This document shows, in pieces, positions 157-8,544 of a stretch of DNA of 64,000 nt; position 1 is the first letter of the stretch, and each line of letters opens with the position of its first letter. Location of the stretch: contig NZ_VORA01000001.1 of assembly GCF_008477545.1 (NCBI RefSeq), positions 1,116,001 to 1,180,000 on the forward strand, read 5' to 3'. Below the pieces are notes generated by a model. That model saw only the letters and a program-made list of their open reading frames with translations, made no database searches and was not told the DNA's origin. The DNA comes from Roseibium aestuarii (GTDB lineage Bacteria > Pseudomonadota > Alphaproteobacteria > Rhizobiales > Stappiaceae). The position numbers and the translations under genes were made by a program.

Positions 157-3141
157 ATGCTGAGGAAAAAGTCGAGCCGCATGGCCCGTCCGACCCAGGG
201 CCGCCTTGCTGCGGTGCTGTCGGGCGCCACCATGGCCACCATGGACCGGCGTACGTTCCTGCGTCGCTCCGGTCTGGCTGCCGGTGGTGTTGCCGCCGTG
301 ACGGCCCTGTCGGGTGGCGCCATGGTGAAGAAGGCCGAGGCTGCAGGCGCAGCCGGTGCCGGCAAGGTGGAAATCAAGAAGTCCGTCTGCACCCACTGCT
401 CGGTCGGTTGTACCGTTCTGGCGGAAGTGCAGGACGGCGTCTGGGTGGGCCAGGAGCCGGGCTTCGACAGCCCGTTCAACTTGGGTTCCCATTGCGCCAA
501 GGGCGCGTCCGTGCGCGAGCATGCCCATGGCGAGCGTCGCCTCAAGTACCCGATGAAGCTCGTCGGCGGAAAGTGGGAGCGCATCTCCTGGGACACCGCC
601 ATCGATGAGCTCGGCGACAAGATGATGCAGGTCCGCGACGAATTCGGTCCGGACTCCGTCTACTGGCTCGGCTCCGCCAAGCACTCCAACGAACAGGCCT
701 ATCTGCTGCGCAAGTTCGCTGCCTTCTTCGGCACGAACAACATCGACCACCAGGCCCGTATCTGTCACTCCACCACGGTCGCAGGTGTTGCCAACACCTG
801 GGGCTATGGCGCGATGACCAACTCCTACAACGACATCCATAACTCCAAGGCGATCTTCCTGATCGGCGGCAATCCGGCCGAGGCCCATCCGGTCTCCCTG
901 ATGCACCTGCTCAAGGCCAAGGAAGAAAACAATGCCCCGCTGATCGTCTGCGATCCGCGCTTCACGCGCACCGCGGCGCATGCCACCGAATATGTCCGCT
1001 TCCGTCCGGGCACGGACGTTGCCCTCGTCTGGGGCATTCTGTGGCACATCTTCGAGAACGGCTGGGAAGACAAGGAATTCATCCGCCAGCGTGTCTGGGG
1101 CATGGATCAGATCCGCGGCGAAGTGGCCAAGTGGACGCCGGAAGAGGTCGAGAACGTCACCGGCGTTCCGGGCTCCCAGCTCAAGCGCGTGGCTCGCACC
1201 CTGGTCAACAACCGTCCGGGCACCGTGATCTGGTGCATGGGCGGCACCCAGCACACCAACGGCAACAACAACACCCGCGCCTACTGCATCCTGCAGCTGG
1301 CCCTTGGCAACATGGGCAAGGCCGGTGGCGGCACCAACATCTTCCGCGGCCATGACAACGTTCAGGGCGCGACCGATCTGGGCGTGCTGGCCGACACCCT
1401 GCCGGGCTACTACGGCCTGACCGACGGCTCCTGGGCTCACTGGGCCCGCGTCTGGGACGTGGACGTCAAGTCGATCCGCGAGCGCTTCTCGGTCATGAAG
1501 GGCAAGGACGGCAAGGACGTGCCGATGATCAACGAGTCGGGCATTCCGGTGTCCCGATGGATCGACGGCGTTCTGGAAGACGAAGACAAGCTGCAGCAGC
1601 CGCACAACACCAAGGTCATGGTGTTCTGGGGTCATGCCCCGAACTCCCAGACCCGTCTGCCGGACATGAAGGTGGCGATGGAGAAGCTCGATACCCTGGT
1701 GGTCATCGATCCCTATCCGACCGTCTCCGCAGTGCTCTCCGACCGCAAGGACGGCGTCTACCTGCTCCCGGCCTCGACCCAGTTCGAGACCTACGGCTCG
1801 GTGACGGCGTCCAACCGCTCCCTGCAGTGGCGCGAGAAGGTGGTCGAGCCGCTCTTCGAGAGCCTGCCGGACCACACGATCATGTACAAGTTCGCCAAGA
1901 AGTTCGGCTTCGACGGCGACATGTTCAAGCACATCCAGGTCAATGGCGAAGAGCCGCTGATCGAGGACATCACCCGCGAGTTCAACCGCGGCATGTGGAC
2001 CATCGGCTACACCGGCCAGTCGCCGGAGCGCATGAAGCTTCACATGGAAAACCAGCACACCTTCGACCGCACCACCCTGCGGGCGAATGGCGGCCCGTGC
2101 GACGGCGACTTCTACGGCATGCCGTGGCCGTGCTGGGGCACTCCGGAAATGAAGCATCCGGGCTCTGCCAACCTCTATGACACCTCCCTGCCGGTCGCCG
2201 AAGGCGGCATGGGCTTCCGCGCCCGCTACGGCGTGGAGCGCAACGGCGAGAACCTTCTGGCCGAAGGCTCCTGGCCGGTCGGCTCGGAGATCGAGGACGG
2301 CTATCCGGAATTCACCATGGCCATGCTGGAAAAGCTCGGCTGGGACAAGGATCTGACCAAGGAAGAGCGCGCCTCCATCGAGAAGGTCGCGGGCTATGTC
2401 CGCAACGACAAGGAAGAGGTGGGCGAACAGTCCCAGACCGGTCCCTATCCGTCCGATTGGGCAGAGAAGATCGGCGGCGTGAACTGGAAGACCGACCTGT
2501 CGGGCGGCATCCAGCGCGTGGCGATCAAGCATGGCTGCGCGCCCTACGGCAACGCCAAGGCCCGTGCGGTCGTCTGGACCTTCCCGGATCCGATCCCGCT
2601 GCACCGCGAGCCGCTCTACACCAACCGGCGTGACCTGCTGGAGAAGTATGCGACCTACGAGGACAAGACCTTCTGGCGTGTGCCGACGGCCTACAAGTCC
2701 ATCCAGGACAACGACTTCTCCAAGGACTTCCCGATGATCCTCACCTCCGGCCGTCTGGTCGAATACGAGGGTGGCGGGGACGAGACGCGCTCCAACCCGT
2801 GGCTGGCCGAGCTGCAGCAGGACATGTTCATCGAGATCAACACCGGGGACGCCAACGACCTTGGCATCCGGGACGGCGAGATGGTCTGGGTGCACGGTCC
2901 GGAAGGCGGCAAGGTGAAGGTCATGGCCATGGTCACCGAGCGCGTCGGACGCGGCGTGACCTTCATGCCCTTCCACTTCGGCGGCTTCTATCAGGGCGAG
3001 GACCTGCGCGGGAAATATCCCTCCGGCGCCGATCCCTATGTCCTGGGTGAAAGCACCAACACTGCACAGACCTATGGCTACGACAGCGTCACCCAGATGC
3101 AGGAAACCAAGGCAACCCTTTGCCGGGTCGAACGGGCGTAA
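157..3141 (+). CDS. fdhA: Formate dehydrogenase catalytic (alpha) subunit, Tat-exported, Mo/W-bis-MGD enzyme
   Basis: Oxidises formate to CO2 at a molybdopterin (Mo or W) centre on the periplasmic side and passes electrons to the adjacent ferredoxin subunit. The 994-residue protein has a long Tat signal: the twin-arginine motif MDRRTFLRR begins at residue 29 and is followed by an Ala/Gly-rich hydrophobic stretch. A [4Fe-4S] site is formed by C78, C81, C85 and C113. The active site is C203-H204 in ARICHS, so this is a Cys enzyme and not a selenocysteine one. A C-terminal molydop-binding domain lies around residues 860-990. The ATG at 157 has GAGGGAGA 8 nt upstream. ATGs at 181, 232 and 241 would also keep the Tat motif. 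Size and neighbours match the FdhABC/FDH3 family. The promoter lies left of the window or within the first 150 bases. Confidence 0.95.
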   Translation: MLRKKSSRMARPTQGRLAAVLSGATMATMDRRTFLRRSGLAAGGVAAVTALSGGAMVKKAEAAGAAGAGKVEIKKSVCTHCSVGCTVLAEVQDGVWVGQEPGFDSPFNLGSHCAKGASVREHAHGERRLKYPMKLVGGKWERISWDTAIDELGDKMMQVRDEFGPDSVYWLGSAKHSNEQAYLLRKFAAFFGTNNIDHQARICHSTTVAGVANTWGYGAMTNSYNDIHNSKAIFLIGGNPAEAHPVSLMHLLKAKEENNAPLIVCDPRFTRTAAHATEYVRFRPGTDVALVWGILWHIFENGWEDKEFIRQRVWGMDQIRGEVAKWTPEEVENVTGVPGSQLKRVARTLVNNRPGTVIWCMGGTQHTNGNNNTRAYCILQLALGNMGKAGGGTNIFRGHDNVQGATDLGVLADTLPGYYGLTDGSWAHWARVWDVDVKSIRERFSVMKGKDGKDVPMINESGIPVSRWIDGVLEDEDKLQQPHNTKVMVFWGHAPNSQTRLPDMKVAMEKLDTLVVIDPYPTVSAVLSDRKDGVYLLPASTQFETYGSVTASNRSLQWREKVVEPLFESLPDHTIMYKFAKKFGFDGDMFKHIQVNGEEPLIEDITREFNRGMWTIGYTGQSPERMKLHMENQHTFDRTTLRANGGPCDGDFYGMPWPCWGTPEMKHPGSANLYDTSLPVAEGGMGFRARYGVERNGENLLAEGSWPVGSEIEDGYPEFTMAMLEKLGWDKDLTKEERASIEKVAGYVRNDKEEVGEQSQTGPYPSDWAEKIGGVNWKTDLSGGIQRVAIKHGCAPYGNAKARAVVWTFPDPIPLHREPLYTNRRDLLEKYATYEDKTFWRVPTAYKSIQDNDFSKDFPMILTSGRLVEYEGGGDETRSNPWLAELQQDMFIEINTGDANDLGIRDGEMVWVHGPEGGKVKVMAMVTERVGRGVTFMPFHFGGFYQGEDLRGKYPSGADPYVLGESTNTAQTYGYDSVTQMQETKATLCRVERA

Positions 3142-3156
3142 GGGAGGAGAACAACA

Positions 3157-3756
3157 ATGGCACGTATGAAATTCCTCTGTGACGCCGAACGCTGCATCGA
3201 GTGCAACGCCTGCGTTACCGCCTGCAAGAACGAGCACGAAGTGCCGTGGGGCATCAACCGCCGTCGCGTCGTGACGATCAACGACGGCAAGCCCGGCGAG
3301 CGGTCCATCTCGGTGGCCTGCATGCACTGCTCCGACGCGCCCTGCATGGCCGTCTGCCCGGTGGATTGCTTCTACCAGACCGACGAAGGCGTGGTCCTGC
3401 ACTCCAAGGACCTGTGCATCGGCTGCGGCTACTGCTTCTATGCCTGCCCCTTCGGCGCGCCGCAGTATCCGCAGGCCGGCAACTTCGGTTCCCGTGGCAA
3501 GATGGACAAGTGCACCTTCTGCGCCGGTGGCCCGGAAGCGGACAATTCCGCAGCCGAGTTCCAGAAGTACGGTCGCAACCGTCTGGCCGAAGGCAAGCTG
3601 CCGCTCTGCGCCGAAATGTGCTCCACCAAGGCCCTGCTCGCCGGTGACGGCGATGTGGTCTCCGCGATCTACCGCGAGCGCGTTGTCGCCCGCGGCTTCG
3701 GATCCGGCGCCTGGGGCTGGGGCACCGCCTATGAGCAGAAGGCCGGCGGTCTCTGA
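3157..3756 (+). CDS. fdhB: Formate dehydrogenase iron-sulfur (beta) subunit, FDH3 type
   Basis: Electron-transfer subunit (199 aa) carrying electrons from the catalytic subunit toward the membrane cytochrome b. Four cysteine groups typical of a four-[4Fe-4S] DMSOR/FdhB-type ferredoxin are visible: C13-x2-C16-x2-C19-x3-C23, a CMHC...CMAVCP group, CIGCGYCFYACP, and CTFC with a later CAEMC. It has no signal peptide, as expected for a subunit co-exported with the Tat-borne alpha subunit. The start has GGAGG 8 nt upstream and lies 15 bp after fdhA, so the two genes are co-transcribed. Also called fdh3B in current annotation. No membrane anchor is visible, unlike E. coli FdnH. A strong hairpin follows within 50 bp. 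Confidence 0.94.
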   Translation: MARMKFLCDAERCIECNACVTACKNEHEVPWGINRRRVVTINDGKPGERSISVACMHCSDAPCMAVCPVDCFYQTDEGVVLHSKDLCIGCGYCFYACPFGAPQYPQAGNFGSRGKMDKCTFCAGGPEADNSAAEFQKYGRNRLAEGKLPLCAEMCSTKALLAGDGDVVSAIYRERVVARGFGSGAWGWGTAYEQKAGGL

Positions 3757-3956: not shown

Positions 3957-4160
3957 ATGACGAGCCACGTAAACGGCCGCACCTTCAAGACCATCGTGAT
4001 CCTCGCCGGCCTGCTGGCCGGGCTTTCCGCATGCCGCGAGAGTGAGGAACACCGCCAGATCAAGCTCGAGAAGGGCGGATATGCCGGGCAGCACGACAAC
4101 CAGCTGAACGAGGACACCCTCCGCCAGCTGCGCCAGCGCGGCAGCCTTCAGCAGAACTGA
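3957..4160 (+). CDS. Small lipoprotein of the formate dehydrogenase operon
   Basis: A 67-residue protein of unknown function. It has a lipoprotein signal: a basic N-terminus, a hydrophobic stretch (IVILAGLLAGLSAC) and a lipobox LSAC giving a mature protein that begins at Cys. The mature part is about 40 residues, charged and Gln-rich, with no recognised domain. AGGAG lies 10 nt upstream of the ATG. It sits between the ferredoxin and cytochrome b subunits in the same orientation, so it probably acts at the membrane with the FDH complex, for example in assembly or anchoring. That role is inferred only from position. Confidence 0.8.
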   Translation: MTSHVNGRTFKTIVILAGLLAGLSACRESEEHRQIKLEKGGYAGQHDNQLNEDTLRQLRQRGSLQQN

Positions 4161-5440: not shown

Positions 5441-6907
5441 ATGCACAGGGTCAGTCTGTCCGACAGCCGGAGATCGACGGGGCGCTTCCGCCGGTCCCTG
5501 GCGGCTGGCCTGATCCCGGCTGCGCTGGTCGCGGTCGCCTTCGCAACAGGTGCAGGGGCCGAAACGGCAAGGCACCCCGACACGGCCGTTTCCTGGCCCG
5601 ACGTCCTTGCTGGCCACGGCGGCCCGGTGAAGTCCGTGCAGATGTCCCCGGACGGACAGCGCATGATCTCAACGTCCTTCGATTATTCAGCCCGGGTGTG
5701 GACCGCGCCGGCAGAGGGGGCGTCTCTCGCCGAGCCGCAGGTGCTGATCGGCCATGAGGCGGCGGTGAATGATGCCCGCTTCCTCCCCGGCAACCGTGCC
5801 GCCACCGTGTCCGACGACAGCGACCTGATCATCTGGGATCTCGGTTCGGGCACGCCGCTCCACCGCTTTCCGGGCAAGGGGGAGAAGGTTCTCTCCCTCG
5901 AAGTCTCCGACGACGGCGCCCACATCGGCGTCGCGAGCTGGGAGAACGAGGCCCGGATCTACGATCTGACCGGTCCCGAACCCCGTCTGGAGGCCACGCT
6001 TTCAGGTCACCGCAACAACGTCAATGCCCTGGCCTTCTCGCCCGAGGGCGACAAGGTATGGACCGCGTCCACCGATGGAGCCATCCGGCGCTTCGACCGG
6101 GTGACGGCTGCGCTGGAACGACAGCTCTTCTCCCTGGGCTGGGGGATCAACACCCTGAAGCGTCTGGACGACGGGCGCAGTCTCCTGTTCGGCGGAGCGG
6201 ACGGAACGGTCGGGCTGATCGACGGCGAGAGCGGCTTCGATCTCGGTCGCCTGACACCCCACAGCCGCCCGGTTCTGGCCCTTGCCGTCTCGCCGGACGG
6301 GCGTCGGCTCGCCAGCGGCGGGGGCGACGGGCTCATCCACGTGCATGACCGGGCGACCCAGACCCTGATCGAGACCTTCGAGACCCCTTATGGTCCGGTC
6401 TGGGGCCTGAGCTTCGACCCGGAGGGAACGGCGCTCTATTATGTCGGCCTGGACGACACCATCCACCGCTGGCAGATCACCCCGCGCAAGCCGTTCGAGC
6501 CGCTGGAGGTGACCTATCCCCGTCGCTTCCAGGTGGCGGATGCGGACGATCCGGGCGCGCTGCAATTCGCCCGCAAGTGCTCGGTCTGTCATACGCTCAC
6601 ACCGGATGACGGCAACCGCGCGGGACCGACCCTTTACGGGGTCTTCGGCCGCAAGGCCGGATCCCTTCCGGGCTATCCCTATTCGGACGCCCTGCTGAAA
6701 AGTGATATCGTCTGGTCCCGCGAGAGCATTTCGCAGCTCTTCGAACATGGACCGGATGTCGTGACCCCGGGCACGAAGATGCCCATCCAGCGCATGCGCT
6801 CACCGGACGACCGGCTGGCGCTTGTGACATTCCTTGAAAAGGCGACGCGCCCGACCTCAGGCGGTTCGGCAGCGTCGCAAGACACCACCGGAGACACAGT
6901 GAAATGA
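5441..6907 (+). CDS. WD40 beta-propeller fused to a class I cytochrome c, exported
   Basis: A 488-residue protein. Residues 1-38 form a signal peptide (hydrophobic AAGLIPAALVAVAFATGAGA). Residues about 45-355 contain WD40-type repeats, recognisable by recurring blocks such as GHGGPVKSVQMSPDG, GHEAAVNDARF, GHRNNVNALAFSPEGD and LAVSPDGRRLASGGGDGLIH. Residues about 365-470 form a mono-heme cytochrome c with C380-x2-C383-H384 and a likely axial Met447 in GTKMPIQRM. The heme domain looks like small mitochondrial-type cytochrome c (GPTLYGVFGRKAG). It is encoded within the FDH run and overlaps the next gene by ATGA. Inferred role: a periplasmic electron acceptor or docking partner for formate dehydrogenase. 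The fusion is plain in the sequence, but its function is not established to my knowledge. Confidence 0.88.
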   Translation: MHRVSLSDSRRSTGRFRRSLAAGLIPAALVAVAFATGAGAETARHPDTAVSWPDVLAGHGGPVKSVQMSPDGQRMISTSFDYSARVWTAPAEGASLAEPQVLIGHEAAVNDARFLPGNRAATVSDDSDLIIWDLGSGTPLHRFPGKGEKVLSLEVSDDGAHIGVASWENEARIYDLTGPEPRLEATLSGHRNNVNALAFSPEGDKVWTASTDGAIRRFDRVTAALERQLFSLGWGINTLKRLDDGRSLLFGGADGTVGLIDGESGFDLGRLTPHSRPVLALAVSPDGRRLASGGGDGLIHVHDRATQTLIETFETPYGPVWGLSFDPEGTALYYVGLDDTIHRWQITPRKPFEPLEVTYPRRFQVADADDPGALQFARKCSVCHTLTPDDGNRAGPTLYGVFGRKAGSLPGYPYSDALLKSDIVWSRESISQLFEHGPDVVTPGTKMPIQRMRSPDDRLALVTFLEKATRPTSGGSAASQDTTGDTVK

Positions 6908-7074
6908 CTGCATTCCTTTCCAGCCTTGCCGCTATGGTCGTGATCGGTGTCGGCGCCTGGGTCGTGCTCACCCAGGAACTCGACTATTCCTCCGTGTCCA
7001 CCTATCAGAGCCATAACCCGTCTGCCGTGCGTCTGGATCCGGGCATGGGCGAGCGCCCGGGCGAGACCCATTGA
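6904..7074 (+). CDS. 56-residue single-pass membrane peptide coupled to the WD40-cytochrome c gene
   Basis: A short gene whose ATG (6904) overlaps the preceding stop codon (ATGA at 6904-6907), a classic translational-coupling arrangement. The peptide starts MTAFLSSLAAMVVIGVGAWV, one hydrophobic helix, and continues with a polar 30-residue tail (QELDYSSVSTYQSHNPSAVR and so on) that would face the periplasm if the N-terminus is inside. No known domain is recognised. Its position suggests a small accessory subunit or membrane tether for the WD40-cytochrome c or the FDH complex. That is inference. Confidence 0.72.
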   Translation: MTAFLSSLAAMVVIGVGAWVVLTQELDYSSVSTYQSHNPSAVRLDPGMGERPGETH

Positions 7075-7247: not shown

Positions 7248-8045
7248 ATGACCGACCTGTCCCTTCCGCCGCTTCTGACCTCCCGGCCCGTTGTCCCGCC
7301 GCAGGACCCCTTCGCCAGTGCGCTCGAGGCGCTGCGGATGGACGCGACCGAGGCCGGGGATCTCTTCTGGTCCGTGCGCGACGACCGGCTGGATTACGCC
7401 CTGGTGCTCGCTCCCGAAGTTGGGCCGCAGCAGGCCCGCCACATGATCTTCGTGGCCATGGTGGCCGCCGCTGACGCCCTGGGCGCCATCGCGCCACCGG
7501 AGCTGGCGATCACCTGGGACTGGCCGCTCGGCCTCTTTGCCAACCGGGGACGGGTGGGCAAGGTGCGGCTTGCCATGAGCGAGACCCTTGACGGTGATGG
7601 TGCGCCCGAGTGGCTGGTGCTGGGTCAATCCCTCGCGCTGAAGCCGGAAAGCGTCAGGTCCGCCGAGGACACCGATCCGGGCCTGCGGCCGGAGATCACC
7701 TCGCTCTGGGACGAAGGGGCTGTGGATCTGGAAACCGCACCTCTGCTGGAAAGCCTGTCCCGCCATTTCCTGACCTGGCTGAACCGCTGGGAAGGGGAGG
7801 GGCTGCGCGCCCTGATGGACGCCTGGCTGTTCCGCTGTGATCTCTATCGCAAGCCGGTCCGCTTCGAGACCGAAGATGGCGTAGTGGAAGGCACCATGCT
7901 CGGACTTGATGACGGGGGCAACCTGATCGTCGAGACGGCTGAGGGCACGCGTATGGTCGCCCTCGACGTGGCCCTGACGCGGGAAGACGCTGCTGCGGCC
8001 TGGCCGGCAGTCGCCCCTTCCACTGGCCCTCATGAGGTTGCCTGA
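7248..8045 (+). CDS. Biotin/lipoate protein ligase-like protein with C-terminal DUF4444
   Basis: A 265-residue cytosolic protein that I recognise as the alphaproteobacterial biotin/lipoate ligase-like family with a DUF4444 tail. Supporting stretches are the ITWDWPLGLFANRGRVGKVRL core (the 'G+VG' ligase-like strand region) and a C-terminal small beta domain (GVVEGTMLGLDDGGNLIVET) that resembles the BPL C-terminal SH3-like domain. Its substrate is unknown. It overlaps or abuts the next gene and heads a set of three coupled genes after the FDH structural genes. I infer a role in maturation or modification connected with formate metabolism, not general biotinylation. ATG at 7248; the 173-bp gap before it has a C-rich stretch (CCCGCC repeats near 7200). 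Confidence 0.75.
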   Translation: MTDLSLPPLLTSRPVVPPQDPFASALEALRMDATEAGDLFWSVRDDRLDYALVLAPEVGPQQARHMIFVAMVAAADALGAIAPPELAITWDWPLGLFANRGRVGKVRLAMSETLDGDGAPEWLVLGQSLALKPESVRSAEDTDPGLRPEITSLWDEGAVDLETAPLLESLSRHFLTWLNRWEGEGLRALMDAWLFRCDLYRKPVRFETEDGVVEGTMLGLDDGGNLIVETAEGTRMVALDVALTREDAAAAWPAVAPSTGPHEVA

Positions 8046-8046
8046 C

Positions 8047-8544
8047 ATGCCCAAGGCCCTGCGCGTGATCCGGCTGGACGCGTCCGACACCCACGTCTTT
8101 GCCGCGGTCGCCCAGCCCGATGAATGGGCGGTGCCTGGCACCACGGTCTTTGCCAGCGGCGCCTTCGGGGATCCCGGCGAGCTGAAGGGCAAGGCCCGAC
8201 AGGCCTTCGTCAGCGGCTTCCTCGGATGTGTCTCCTTCGGATATTCCACGCTGGTCAGCGTCGGCGAGGCGCGGACCGACGAGCTGGAGGCGGCCGTGGA
8301 GGCTCTCGGCCAGCATTTCGTCCGGGCCTGCGGCGCGCCCAATGACATGGTCGCCCGCGAGGCGGCGCGCGAGGAAATGACCGCAGCACAGGATCTGGCG
8401 GCAGACCTGCCGCTCAACACGCTGCTGGCGCTGGCGCGCGAAGTGGGCGAGAACGGTGAGCTTCGGGAACGCATCCAGGTGGTCGTTCCCGCCGACAAGG
8501 AGGCCCACGCCCGCATCTGGGACGTGGTCGAGGAGGGGGAATGA
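8047..8544 (+). CDS. Conserved protein of unknown function, probably DUF6505 family
   Basis: About 165 residues starting MPKALRVIRLDASDTHVFAA. An alternative start at 8032 would overlap the previous gene by 14 bp. I prefer the ATG at 8047, 1 nt after the upstream stop, because TGAGG sits 9 nt before it and the family-like N-terminus begins there. No signal peptide, membrane segment or cofactor motif is seen; it is acidic and probably cytosolic. One feature is GFLGCVSFGYSTLV with a single Cys. I recall this family as DUF6505, found with alphaproteobacterial FDH genes, but cannot verify it here. The stop overlaps the next ATG (ATGA). Confidence 0.72.
   Translation: MPKALRVIRLDASDTHVFAAVAQPDEWAVPGTTVFASGAFGDPGELKGKARQAFVSGFLGCVSFGYSTLVSVGEARTDELEAAVEALGQHFVRACGAPNDMVAREAAREEMTAAQDLAADLPLNTLLALAREVGENGELRERIQVVVPADKEAHARIWDVVEEGE

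What the first reader, a model, noticed from the sequence alone, without database searches (positions are those of the whole stretch)
5441..6907. WD40 propeller fused to a cytochrome c within the FDH operon
WD40 repeats precede a heme domain (C380-x2-C383-H384, Met447) in an exported protein. A propeller docking platform with a tethered heme would suit direct electron transfer from formate dehydrogenase to a periplasmic acceptor.
Basis: partly seen in the sequence, partly recalled or inferred. Interest (0 to 1): 0.7.

Follow-up and report, generated by a model that had tools for sequence, protein, structure and literature searches.

The report
Heme-carrying propeller partner of formate dehydrogenase
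A bacterial gene for a probably periplasmic protein that joins a seven-bladed propeller to a small heme domain travels with one kind of formate dehydrogenase, and may give that enzyme an extra way to pass on its electrons.

Summary
ORF 5441-6907 (+, 488 aa) has a signal-peptide-like N-terminus, a seven-bladed WD40 propeller (residues ~54-346, model) and a class I c-type cytochrome domain (C380-x2-C383-H384, Met447). It follows fdhC in an FDH3-type operon. The link to FDH3 is strong: 33 of 45 FDH3-positive genomes in a class sample match its profile, against 0 of 244 FDH3-negative ones. In a phylum sample it is 21 of 54 against 0 of 245; all 21 are alphaproteobacteria. The heme site is intact in 104 of 104 distinct fused copies. 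In six genomes propeller and cytochrome are separate neighbouring genes at the FDH3 locus. Fused forms make one clade in both domain trees, though the FdhA tree does not mirror this. Not shown: heme binding, docking, electron transfer. FdhC keeps its heme b histidines and NAGQK motif, so the heme would usually add an electron exit. The linker has one length (27 residues in 36 of 37), against a loose tether. My paper searches, seen mostly as listings, brought up no description of it.

The parts
157..3141 (+). fdhA, FDH3 catalytic subunit (Tat motif RRTFLR, active-site Cys 203 by my reading, one Fe4S4 domain)
   Evidence: closest solved chain 9vap_A, E=0; TIGR01591 at 476.8 bits is below its 666-bit cut-off; Tat motif and Cys located
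3157..3756 (+). fdhB, FDH3 beta subunit (18 Cys, enough for four 4Fe-4S clusters)
   Evidence: NF038355 FDH3_beta 347.2 bits, cut-off 240; 9vap_B 9.6e-100; Cys positions
3957..4160 (+). small lipoprotein-like ORF (67 aa, lipobox-like LSAC, my reading)
   Evidence: Sequence, translation; matches between fdhB and fdhC in L134 and L138
4213..5376 (+). fdhC, gamma subunit, cytochrome b561 type
   Evidence: TIGR01583 147.8 bits, cut-off 115.85; aligns with 1kqf_C, 2.3e-23; His 161, 205, 321, 335 in 138 of 138 rows
5441..6907 (+). the WD40-cytochrome c protein (488 aa)
5441..5560 (+). probable signal peptide, residues 1-40, AGA|ET
   Evidence: Read from sequence; 35 of 37 rows have a hydrophobic 15-mer above 1.6 before the propeller
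5600..6478 (+). seven-bladed WD40 propeller, residues 54-346
   Evidence: Pfam; AlphaFold model with 28 strands; Foldseek best 5yzv_B, TMt 0.93
6476..6553 (+). linker, residues 346-371
   Evidence: Residues 345-371 span 27 residues in 36 of 37 aligned rows, 34 in one; pLDDT under 50 at 353-368
6551..6850 (+). class I cytochrome c domain, residues 371-470
6578..6592 (+). C380-S-V-C383-H384 heme attachment site
   Evidence: invariant 37 of 37, CxxCH in 104 of 104
6779..6781 (+). probable axial ligand Met447
   Evidence: Invariant 37 of 37; aligned with PGTKM of cytochrome c
6904..7074 (+). single-TM microprotein (56 aa, AVRLD near the C-terminus); its ATG overlaps the stop of the WD40-cytochrome gene
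   Evidence: no Pfam or NCBIfam match at E<=0.1
7248..8045 (+). biotin/lipoate ligase-like gene of the FDH3 accessory set
   Evidence: PF16917; so annotated at the FDH3 clusters of S. meliloti and Bradyrhizobium
8032..8544 (+). DUF6505 gene
   Evidence: PF20115
8541..9554 (+). DUF6352 gene
   Evidence: PF19879
12027..14165 (-). multi-4Fe-4S accessory protein gene (start codon uncertain)
   Evidence: Fer4 families; a 4Fe-4S binding protein is annotated at the clusters

Best explanation
The protein is a dedicated periplasmic electron-transfer partner of the FDH3 formate dehydrogenase of alphaproteobacteria. The propeller binds the FDH3 complex on its periplasmic side and holds a single class I heme c at a fixed distance, near the iron-sulfur chain of FdhB. 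Electrons from formate can then leave by two routes: through FdhC's b hemes to quinone, or from FdhB to the heme c and on to soluble cytochrome c and the oxidases, bypassing quinone and bc1. Shown here: architecture, intact heme site, presence only with FDH3 in the samples searched, split-gene forms, and one fused clade in both domain trees. Inferred: export, docking, the place of the heme, and the direction of electron flow.
For: Every sampled genome with a profile match has FDH3: 33 of 33 in the class sample and 21 of 21 in the phylum sample, against 0 of 244 and 0 of 245 FDH3-negative genomes. The match lies within 4 kb of fdhB in 27 of 30 same-contig cases, two of them split forms. The heme site is intact in 104 of 104 fused copies, and the cytochrome domain is closer to the window's than the propeller is in 36 of 36 comparisons (means 64.7% and 38.9%). 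In six genomes a separate propeller gene and a separate cytochrome c gene stand together at the FDH3 locus, so the pairing holds without the fusion. In G061 the gene seems to follow fdhB directly: fdhB runs off the ends of two contigs, one with fdhA, the other with the fusion gene 0.7 kb on. The FdhAB relative from Shewanella (9VAP) is described as having intrinsic direct electron transfer capability, which makes FdhB giving electrons to an outside acceptor plausible. The window's genome has a CcmF gene for heme c assembly and four COX1-family genes.
Against: No binding, redox or structural data. FdhC keeps the residues of the quinone route, so the heme is probably not needed to remove electrons. 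FDH3 genes occur without a match in all 27 non-alpha FDH3 genomes of the phylum sample, nine of them one genus, and in some alphaproteobacteria. A Met-ligated cytochrome c normally has a high potential (recalled), so using it for formate would give up energy. Cytochrome-domain net charge runs from -4 to +12, so no common charged docking face is seen. In rhizobial gene order the gene heads the accessory set, about 6.7 kb from fdhA, which also fits a maturation role. Two genomes of one family have a propeller-only relative beside an NAD-type FDH, and two others have a propeller-only gene at the FDH3 locus with no cytochrome match in the stretch fetched.
Confidence: 0.5

Rival explanations
1. Assembly, stability or redox-checking factor. 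The propeller is a periplasmic scaffold that helps mature or hold the exported FDH3 complex, and the heme is a sensor or structural part, not a main electron route.
For: In Sinorhizobium meliloti and Bradyrhizobium the gene sits at the head of the accessory set with TorD, DUF3305, DUF3306, DUF6352, DUF6505 and the ligase-like gene, not beside fdhC. Propeller-only relatives without a cytochrome match exist at FDH3 loci (L095, L103) and beside an NAD-type FDH.
Against: The heme site shows no decay in 104 copies and the cytochrome domain is the better conserved part. FDH3 genes occur without it in all 27 non-alpha FDH3 genomes sampled.
Confidence: 0.27
2. Redox bridge in another direction: the heme passes electrons between FDH3 and a different periplasmic enzyme, feeds electrons into FDH3 for CO2 reduction, or drains electrons to protect FDH3 from oxygen.
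For: Same anatomy and linkage; matches only among alphaproteobacteria would fit a need of that group.
Against: No other redox enzyme caught my eye as a steady neighbour, but I did not search for one systematically, so this is weak.
Confidence: 0.15
3. Ordinary cytochrome c that happens to be fused to a WD40 domain, with linkage by operon inheritance only.
For: WD40 proteins and class I cytochromes c are common; the genome has three other cytochromes c 31-33% identical in that domain.
Against: Nested presence with FDH3, Fisher p about 1e-33 and 6e-18, not corrected for relatedness; the same pairing in two gene orders and as split genes.
Confidence: 0.04

Closest known systems
FDH3-type formate dehydrogenase (NF038355 beta; SoFdhAB, PDB 9VAP)
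   Same: Same FdhA and FdhB families: FdhB 9.6e-100, FdhA E=0; Cys active site in SoFdhAB and, by my reading, here
   Different: The entry's chains that matched are FdhA and FdhB of Shewanella; no WD40-cytochrome match in the 27 non-alpha FDH3 genomes of the phylum sample
FdhABC3 of Desulfovibrio/Nitratidesulfovibrio, an FDH with a cytochrome c subunit (Chem Rev 2026, PMC13397495, passages read)
   Same: Periplasmic FDH with a dedicated c-type cytochrome
   Different: That subunit is a tetraheme cytochrome and those enzymes lack an integral membrane subunit; here one heme site on a WD40 propeller, usually with FdhC beside it
E. coli formate dehydrogenase-N (1KQF)
   Same: FdhC aligns with its cytochrome b556 subunit, 2.3e-23
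   Different: No heme c partner in FDH-N (recalled); FdhB here is 199 aa and, as I read it, lacks the C-terminal membrane helix of FdnH (recalled)
Cytochrome cd1 nitrite reductase
   Same: A propeller and a c-type cytochrome in one periplasmic chain (recalled)
   Different: There the cytochrome comes first and an eight-bladed propeller binds heme d1 (recalled); here a seven-bladed WD40 propeller comes first
Class I cytochromes c (c550, c2, mitochondrial c)
   Same: CxxCH, Met ligand position, sequence family
   Different: Fused to a propeller; M-P-x-Q at the Met, with Pro and Gln in 37 of 37

Membership tests
FDH3-type formate dehydrogenase locus | FDH3 beta subunit above the curated cut-off | tested here: met
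   347.2 bits against 240
FDH3-type formate dehydrogenase locus | catalytic subunit and b-type gamma subunit alongside | tested here: met
   fdhA and fdhC; TIGR01583 over its cut-off for fdhC, TIGR01591 under its cut-off for fdhA, whose closest solved relative is 9vap_A
WD40 repeat protein | PF00400 repeats above cut-off | tested here: met
   125.9 bits against 27, four stretches
WD40 repeat protein | closed seven-bladed propeller | tested here: met
   AlphaFold model with 28 strands, mean pLDDT 82.5, matching solved seven-bladed propellers; a model, not a solved structure
Class I c-type cytochrome | CxxCH and Met ligand in the sequence | tested here: met
Class I c-type cytochrome | covalently bound heme | not testable with these tools
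   CcmF gene in the genome; binding itself untested
Dedicated cytochrome c subunit of FDH (FdhABC3 kind) | tetraheme cytochrome | tested here: not met
   One CxxCH in each of 37 of 37 rows; the comparison is
Dedicated cytochrome c subunit of FDH (FdhABC3 kind) | stable part of the purified FDH complex | not testable with these tools
   No biochemical data
Cytochrome cd1 nitrite reductase | N-terminal cytochrome c, then eight-bladed heme d1 propeller | tested here: not met
   Domain order is reversed and the modelled propeller has seven blades; the definition is recalled, and the Pfam list showed 25 of 35 families

The most novel reading that the evidence does not exclude
FDH3 in alphaproteobacteria is a branched enzyme. 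A WD40 propeller clamps a single heme c onto the complex at a fixed distance, turning a formate:quinone oxidoreductase into one that can also act as a formate:cytochrome c oxidoreductase. This module arose once, by fusion of a propeller gene and a cytochrome c gene that already sat together at the FDH3 locus, and the cytochrome c-microprotein gene pair is part of it.
Probability: 0.38. Interest if true: 0.72.

Novelty: new variant of a known kind. Interest (0 to 1): 0.55.

Why it matters
The gene occurs in marine and soil alphaproteobacteria, among them the SAR116 cluster, Roseibium, Sinorhizobium, Bradyrhizobium and Methylobacterium. A second, quinone-independent exit would change how formate is counted in their energy budgets and would give a role to a gene that plasmid records call 'c-type cytochrome' or 'hypothetical protein'. 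A natural module that couples FdhB to a c-type heme would also interest people wiring FDH to electrodes for CO2 work. The split and fused forms give ready-made test pairs.

Tried and rejected
Cytochrome cd1-like enzyme: rejected on domain order and propeller type. Replacement of FdhC by the fusion protein: considered because Marivibrio (L023) has an fdhB copy directly before the fusion gene, and G061 has fdhB running off the ends of two contigs with the fusion gene 0.7 kb on. In Marivibrio a full fdhA-fdhB-fdhC cluster lies elsewhere, so it is not supported there. In G061 the only fdhC match is 36-40% identical and no other FDH3 gene matched in the 13.8 kb around it, so there it stays open. 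Microprotein as a ligand or anchor specific to the WD40-cytochrome: weakened because related microproteins also occur at FDH3 loci without the fusion. Direction of evolution: on the FdhA tree the split genomes are nested among fused ones and labels need many changes, while both domain trees put all fused forms in one clade with split forms outside. One fusion followed by transfers or losses would fit, but the trees disagree, the cytochrome tree is rooted on three cytochromes of one genome over about 110 columns, and the propeller tree has no good root. Fold search gave WD40 propellers in the 50 rows shown. Promoter-like and terminator-like sites were about as many as in shuffles (1 against 0.7, 6 against 5.1). 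Literature: searches were seen as listings (titles, starts of abstracts); none of the listed titles or abstract starts describes a WD40-cytochrome c with FDH, but I did not open those papers, except PMC13397495 (passages and one section). led to PMC4464133 (passages read), which reports DUF3305/DUF3306 beside FDH operons; 'WD40' and 'cytochrome c' do not occur in its main text.

Full report
Check of the observation. The ORF at 5441-6907 on the + strand encodes 488 residues. Pfam finds WD40 repeats (PF00400, 2.9e-37) and NCBIfam a cytochrome c-550-type domain at residues 375-454, well under that model's cut-off for full members. The C-terminal domain aligns with cytochromes c of known structure, best E 4.6e-21, placing Met447 on the axial Met. 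AlphaFold with 22 sequences gives mean pLDDT 82.5, 28 propeller strands (seven blades) and a helical C-terminal domain. The 50 nearest folds shown by Foldseek are WD40 propellers or complexes holding them, the first being 5yzv_B.

Surroundings. Upstream on the same strand lie fdhA, fdhB and fdhC; fdhB is an FDH3 beta subunit by a curated model (347.2 bits, cut-off 240). A 67-aa lipoprotein-like ORF lies between fdhB and fdhC. The fusion gene starts 64 bases after the fdhC stop, and a 56-aa single-TM ORF begins inside its stop codon. A ligase-like gene, DUF6505 and DUF6352 follow, and a multi-4Fe-4S protein is encoded on the other strand. About 0.3 kb before the window ends a TorD-like gene (42% identical to the annotated TorD of the S. 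meliloti cluster). The best matches of the genome-contig scan are Roseibium limicola and R. polysiphoniae (69 and 64% identity), so the window is probably from a Roseibium-like genome; this is inference.

Linkage. One scan of genome contigs gave 50 loci. In 45 of the 50 fdhC lies just upstream; in one (Marivibrio, L023) fdhB does; in four the contig begins at the match. From the 40 other genomes with strong hits I fetched 19; 17 of the 19 have fdhC next to the gene, and two do not, L076 (an FDH3 cluster lies about 7 kb on) and L079 (the gene is convergent with fdhB, and the fdhC match is only 37% identical). In a sample of 289 genomes of the class, own genome included, 45 have FDH3 beta and 33 match the fusion profile at E<=1e-60; all 33 are among the 45. 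In a sample of 299 of the phylum, 54 have FDH3 beta and 21 match, all within the 54; these are 21 of 27 alphaproteobacteria and 0 of 27 others, nine of the latter being one genus. Fisher tests give about 1e-33 and 6e-18, without correction for shared ancestry. The two samples overlap; together they hold 89 distinct FDH3 genomes and 45 with a match. On the same contig, 27 of 30 class-sample matches lie within 4 kb of fdhB, 29 of 30 within 15 kb, one at 85 kb; three more are on different contigs. Limits: the profile was built from FDH3-linked copies, only the five best first-look candidates per genome were scored, and more distant fusions could fall under the threshold.

Split forms. Of the 33 profile hits in the class sample, 30 are fused, two (G228, G307) are split and one (G252) is propeller-only. 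The 45 FDH3 genomes divide into 30 fused, 6 split (G132, G228, G307, G309, G231, G169), 2 propeller-only at the FDH3 locus (G096, G319), 2 propeller-only elsewhere (G252, G324) and 5 with no specific propeller found (G101, G120, G188, G191, G301; G188 has only matches in large WD40 proteins). One copy counted as fused (L086, G149) is interrupted by a stop codon. The propeller profile found nothing at E<=1e-55 in 15 of the 27 non-alpha FDH3 genomes; the other 12 were not searched with it. In all six split loci the cytochrome c gene stands on the opposite strand, tail to tail with the propeller gene, and the microprotein gene follows the cytochrome on its strand, the same order cytochrome-microprotein as in the window. 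Three of the six split cytochromes score 137-144 bits on the fused-domain profile, the other three 83-97, which overlaps the range of the window genome's own unrelated cytochromes c (62-88). A careful tree of 41 rows still groups all six with the fused domains, apart from those three cytochromes (99/93), and the 32 fused domains in it make one clade (100/97); a quick tree with 68 fused rows agrees. The propeller tree also makes 66 fused forms one side of a branch (97, SH-aLRT, quick search). The FdhA tree does not show the same order.

What is conserved. C380, C383, H384 and M447 are invariant in 37 of 37. Over the loci held, 104 of 104 distinct fused segments keep CxxCH; Met is kept in all, with the Lys before it replaced by Arg in three. 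The cytochrome domain is closer to the window's than the propeller is in 36 of 36 comparisons, means 64.7 and 38.9% identity. Linker length is 27 in 36 of 37 and 34 in one. Net charge of the cytochrome domain varies from -4 to +12, so no uniform charge pattern for docking can be claimed.

The electron path. FdhC has four histidines in the heme b region that aligns with E. coli FDH-N (which residues are ligands is recalled); all four are in 138 of 138 rows, and N, G and K of NAGQK in 137 of 138, Q in 129 (many rows are near-copies or two loci of one genome). The quinone route is therefore probably working. The FdhAB relative of known structure, 9VAP, is SoFdhAB of Shewanella oneidensis, described in a review as oxygen tolerant and capable of direct electron transfer (section read). 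This makes transfer from FdhB to an outside heme plausible, not shown. G061 is the one genome where the fusion gene may follow fdhB with no close fdhC: fdhB ends two contigs, the fusion gene starts 0.7 kb after it, and the only fdhC match is 36-40% identical and stands away from the other FDH3 genes. The join of the two contigs is inferred. The window genome has a CcmF gene and four COX1-family genes.

Gene order in named records. In Salipiger the order is as in the window: FDH3 alpha, beta, gamma, 'c-type cytochrome', small 'hypothetical protein'. In Sinorhizobium meliloti ('hypothetical protein') and Bradyrhizobium ('c-type cytochrome') the gene heads a set: 4Fe-4S protein, ligase-like, DUF6505, DUF6352, DUF3305, DUF3306, TorD, a small protein (annotated 'formate dehydrogenase' or Tat signal protein), fdhA, fdh3B, fdhC, with about 6.7 kb between the gene and fdhA. 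The Methylobacterium record has no annotation to read. This second order keeps the link but also suits an accessory role.

Reading. That the protein is a dedicated FDH3 partner is well supported (I would put about 0.9). That it is an electron exit is the most likely function given a strictly kept heme site, but docking and electron flow are inferred, hence 0.5 overall. An assembly or redox-checking role is the main rival. The paper searches brought up no description of the protein, judged from listings and passages of two papers; the library holds open-licence papers only, so it may be described elsewhere.

Noticed in passing
window 6904-7074 (+); also L114, L146, L147, L153 and others: A 40-57 aa single-TM microprotein with an invariant Arg in a V-R-L motif near the C-terminus (R in 46, V in 45, L in 43 of 46 chosen rows). 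A small TM ORF follows the fusion gene in 86 of 105 examined copies (87 hits, one judged spurious), and relatives also occur at FDH3 loci without the fusion; the window's copy has no Pfam or NCBIfam match.
   Followed up: partly
L133:393-1379 (+) and L158:5992-6903 (-): In two genomes of one family a propeller-only relative, with a ~135-aa protein gene beside it, stands next to genes of an NAD-type formate dehydrogenase (FdsA- and NuoF-like), so the propeller may be tied to formate enzymes more widely.
   Followed up: partly
L023:7042-9317 (+): Marivibrio halodurans has a second fdhB copy directly before the fusion gene, with no fdhA match in the locus; a torD-fdhA-fdhB-fdhC cluster without the fusion in the stretch fetched lies on another contig.
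   Followed up: partly
L129 and L130 (G061): fdhB is broken by contig ends and the fusion gene seems to follow it directly; the genome's only fdhC match is distant and stands elsewhere.
   Followed up: partly
window 3957-4160 (+): Small lipoprotein-like ORF between fdhB and fdhC, with matches at the same place in L134 and L138.
   Followed up: no
L077 and L078: Two relatives of the same genus have the fusion gene matched in two pieces, perhaps decayed genes or sequencing errors.
   Followed up: no
L142 and L143: One genome (G498) has two FDH3 clusters, only one of them with the fusion gene in the stretch fetched.
   Followed up: no
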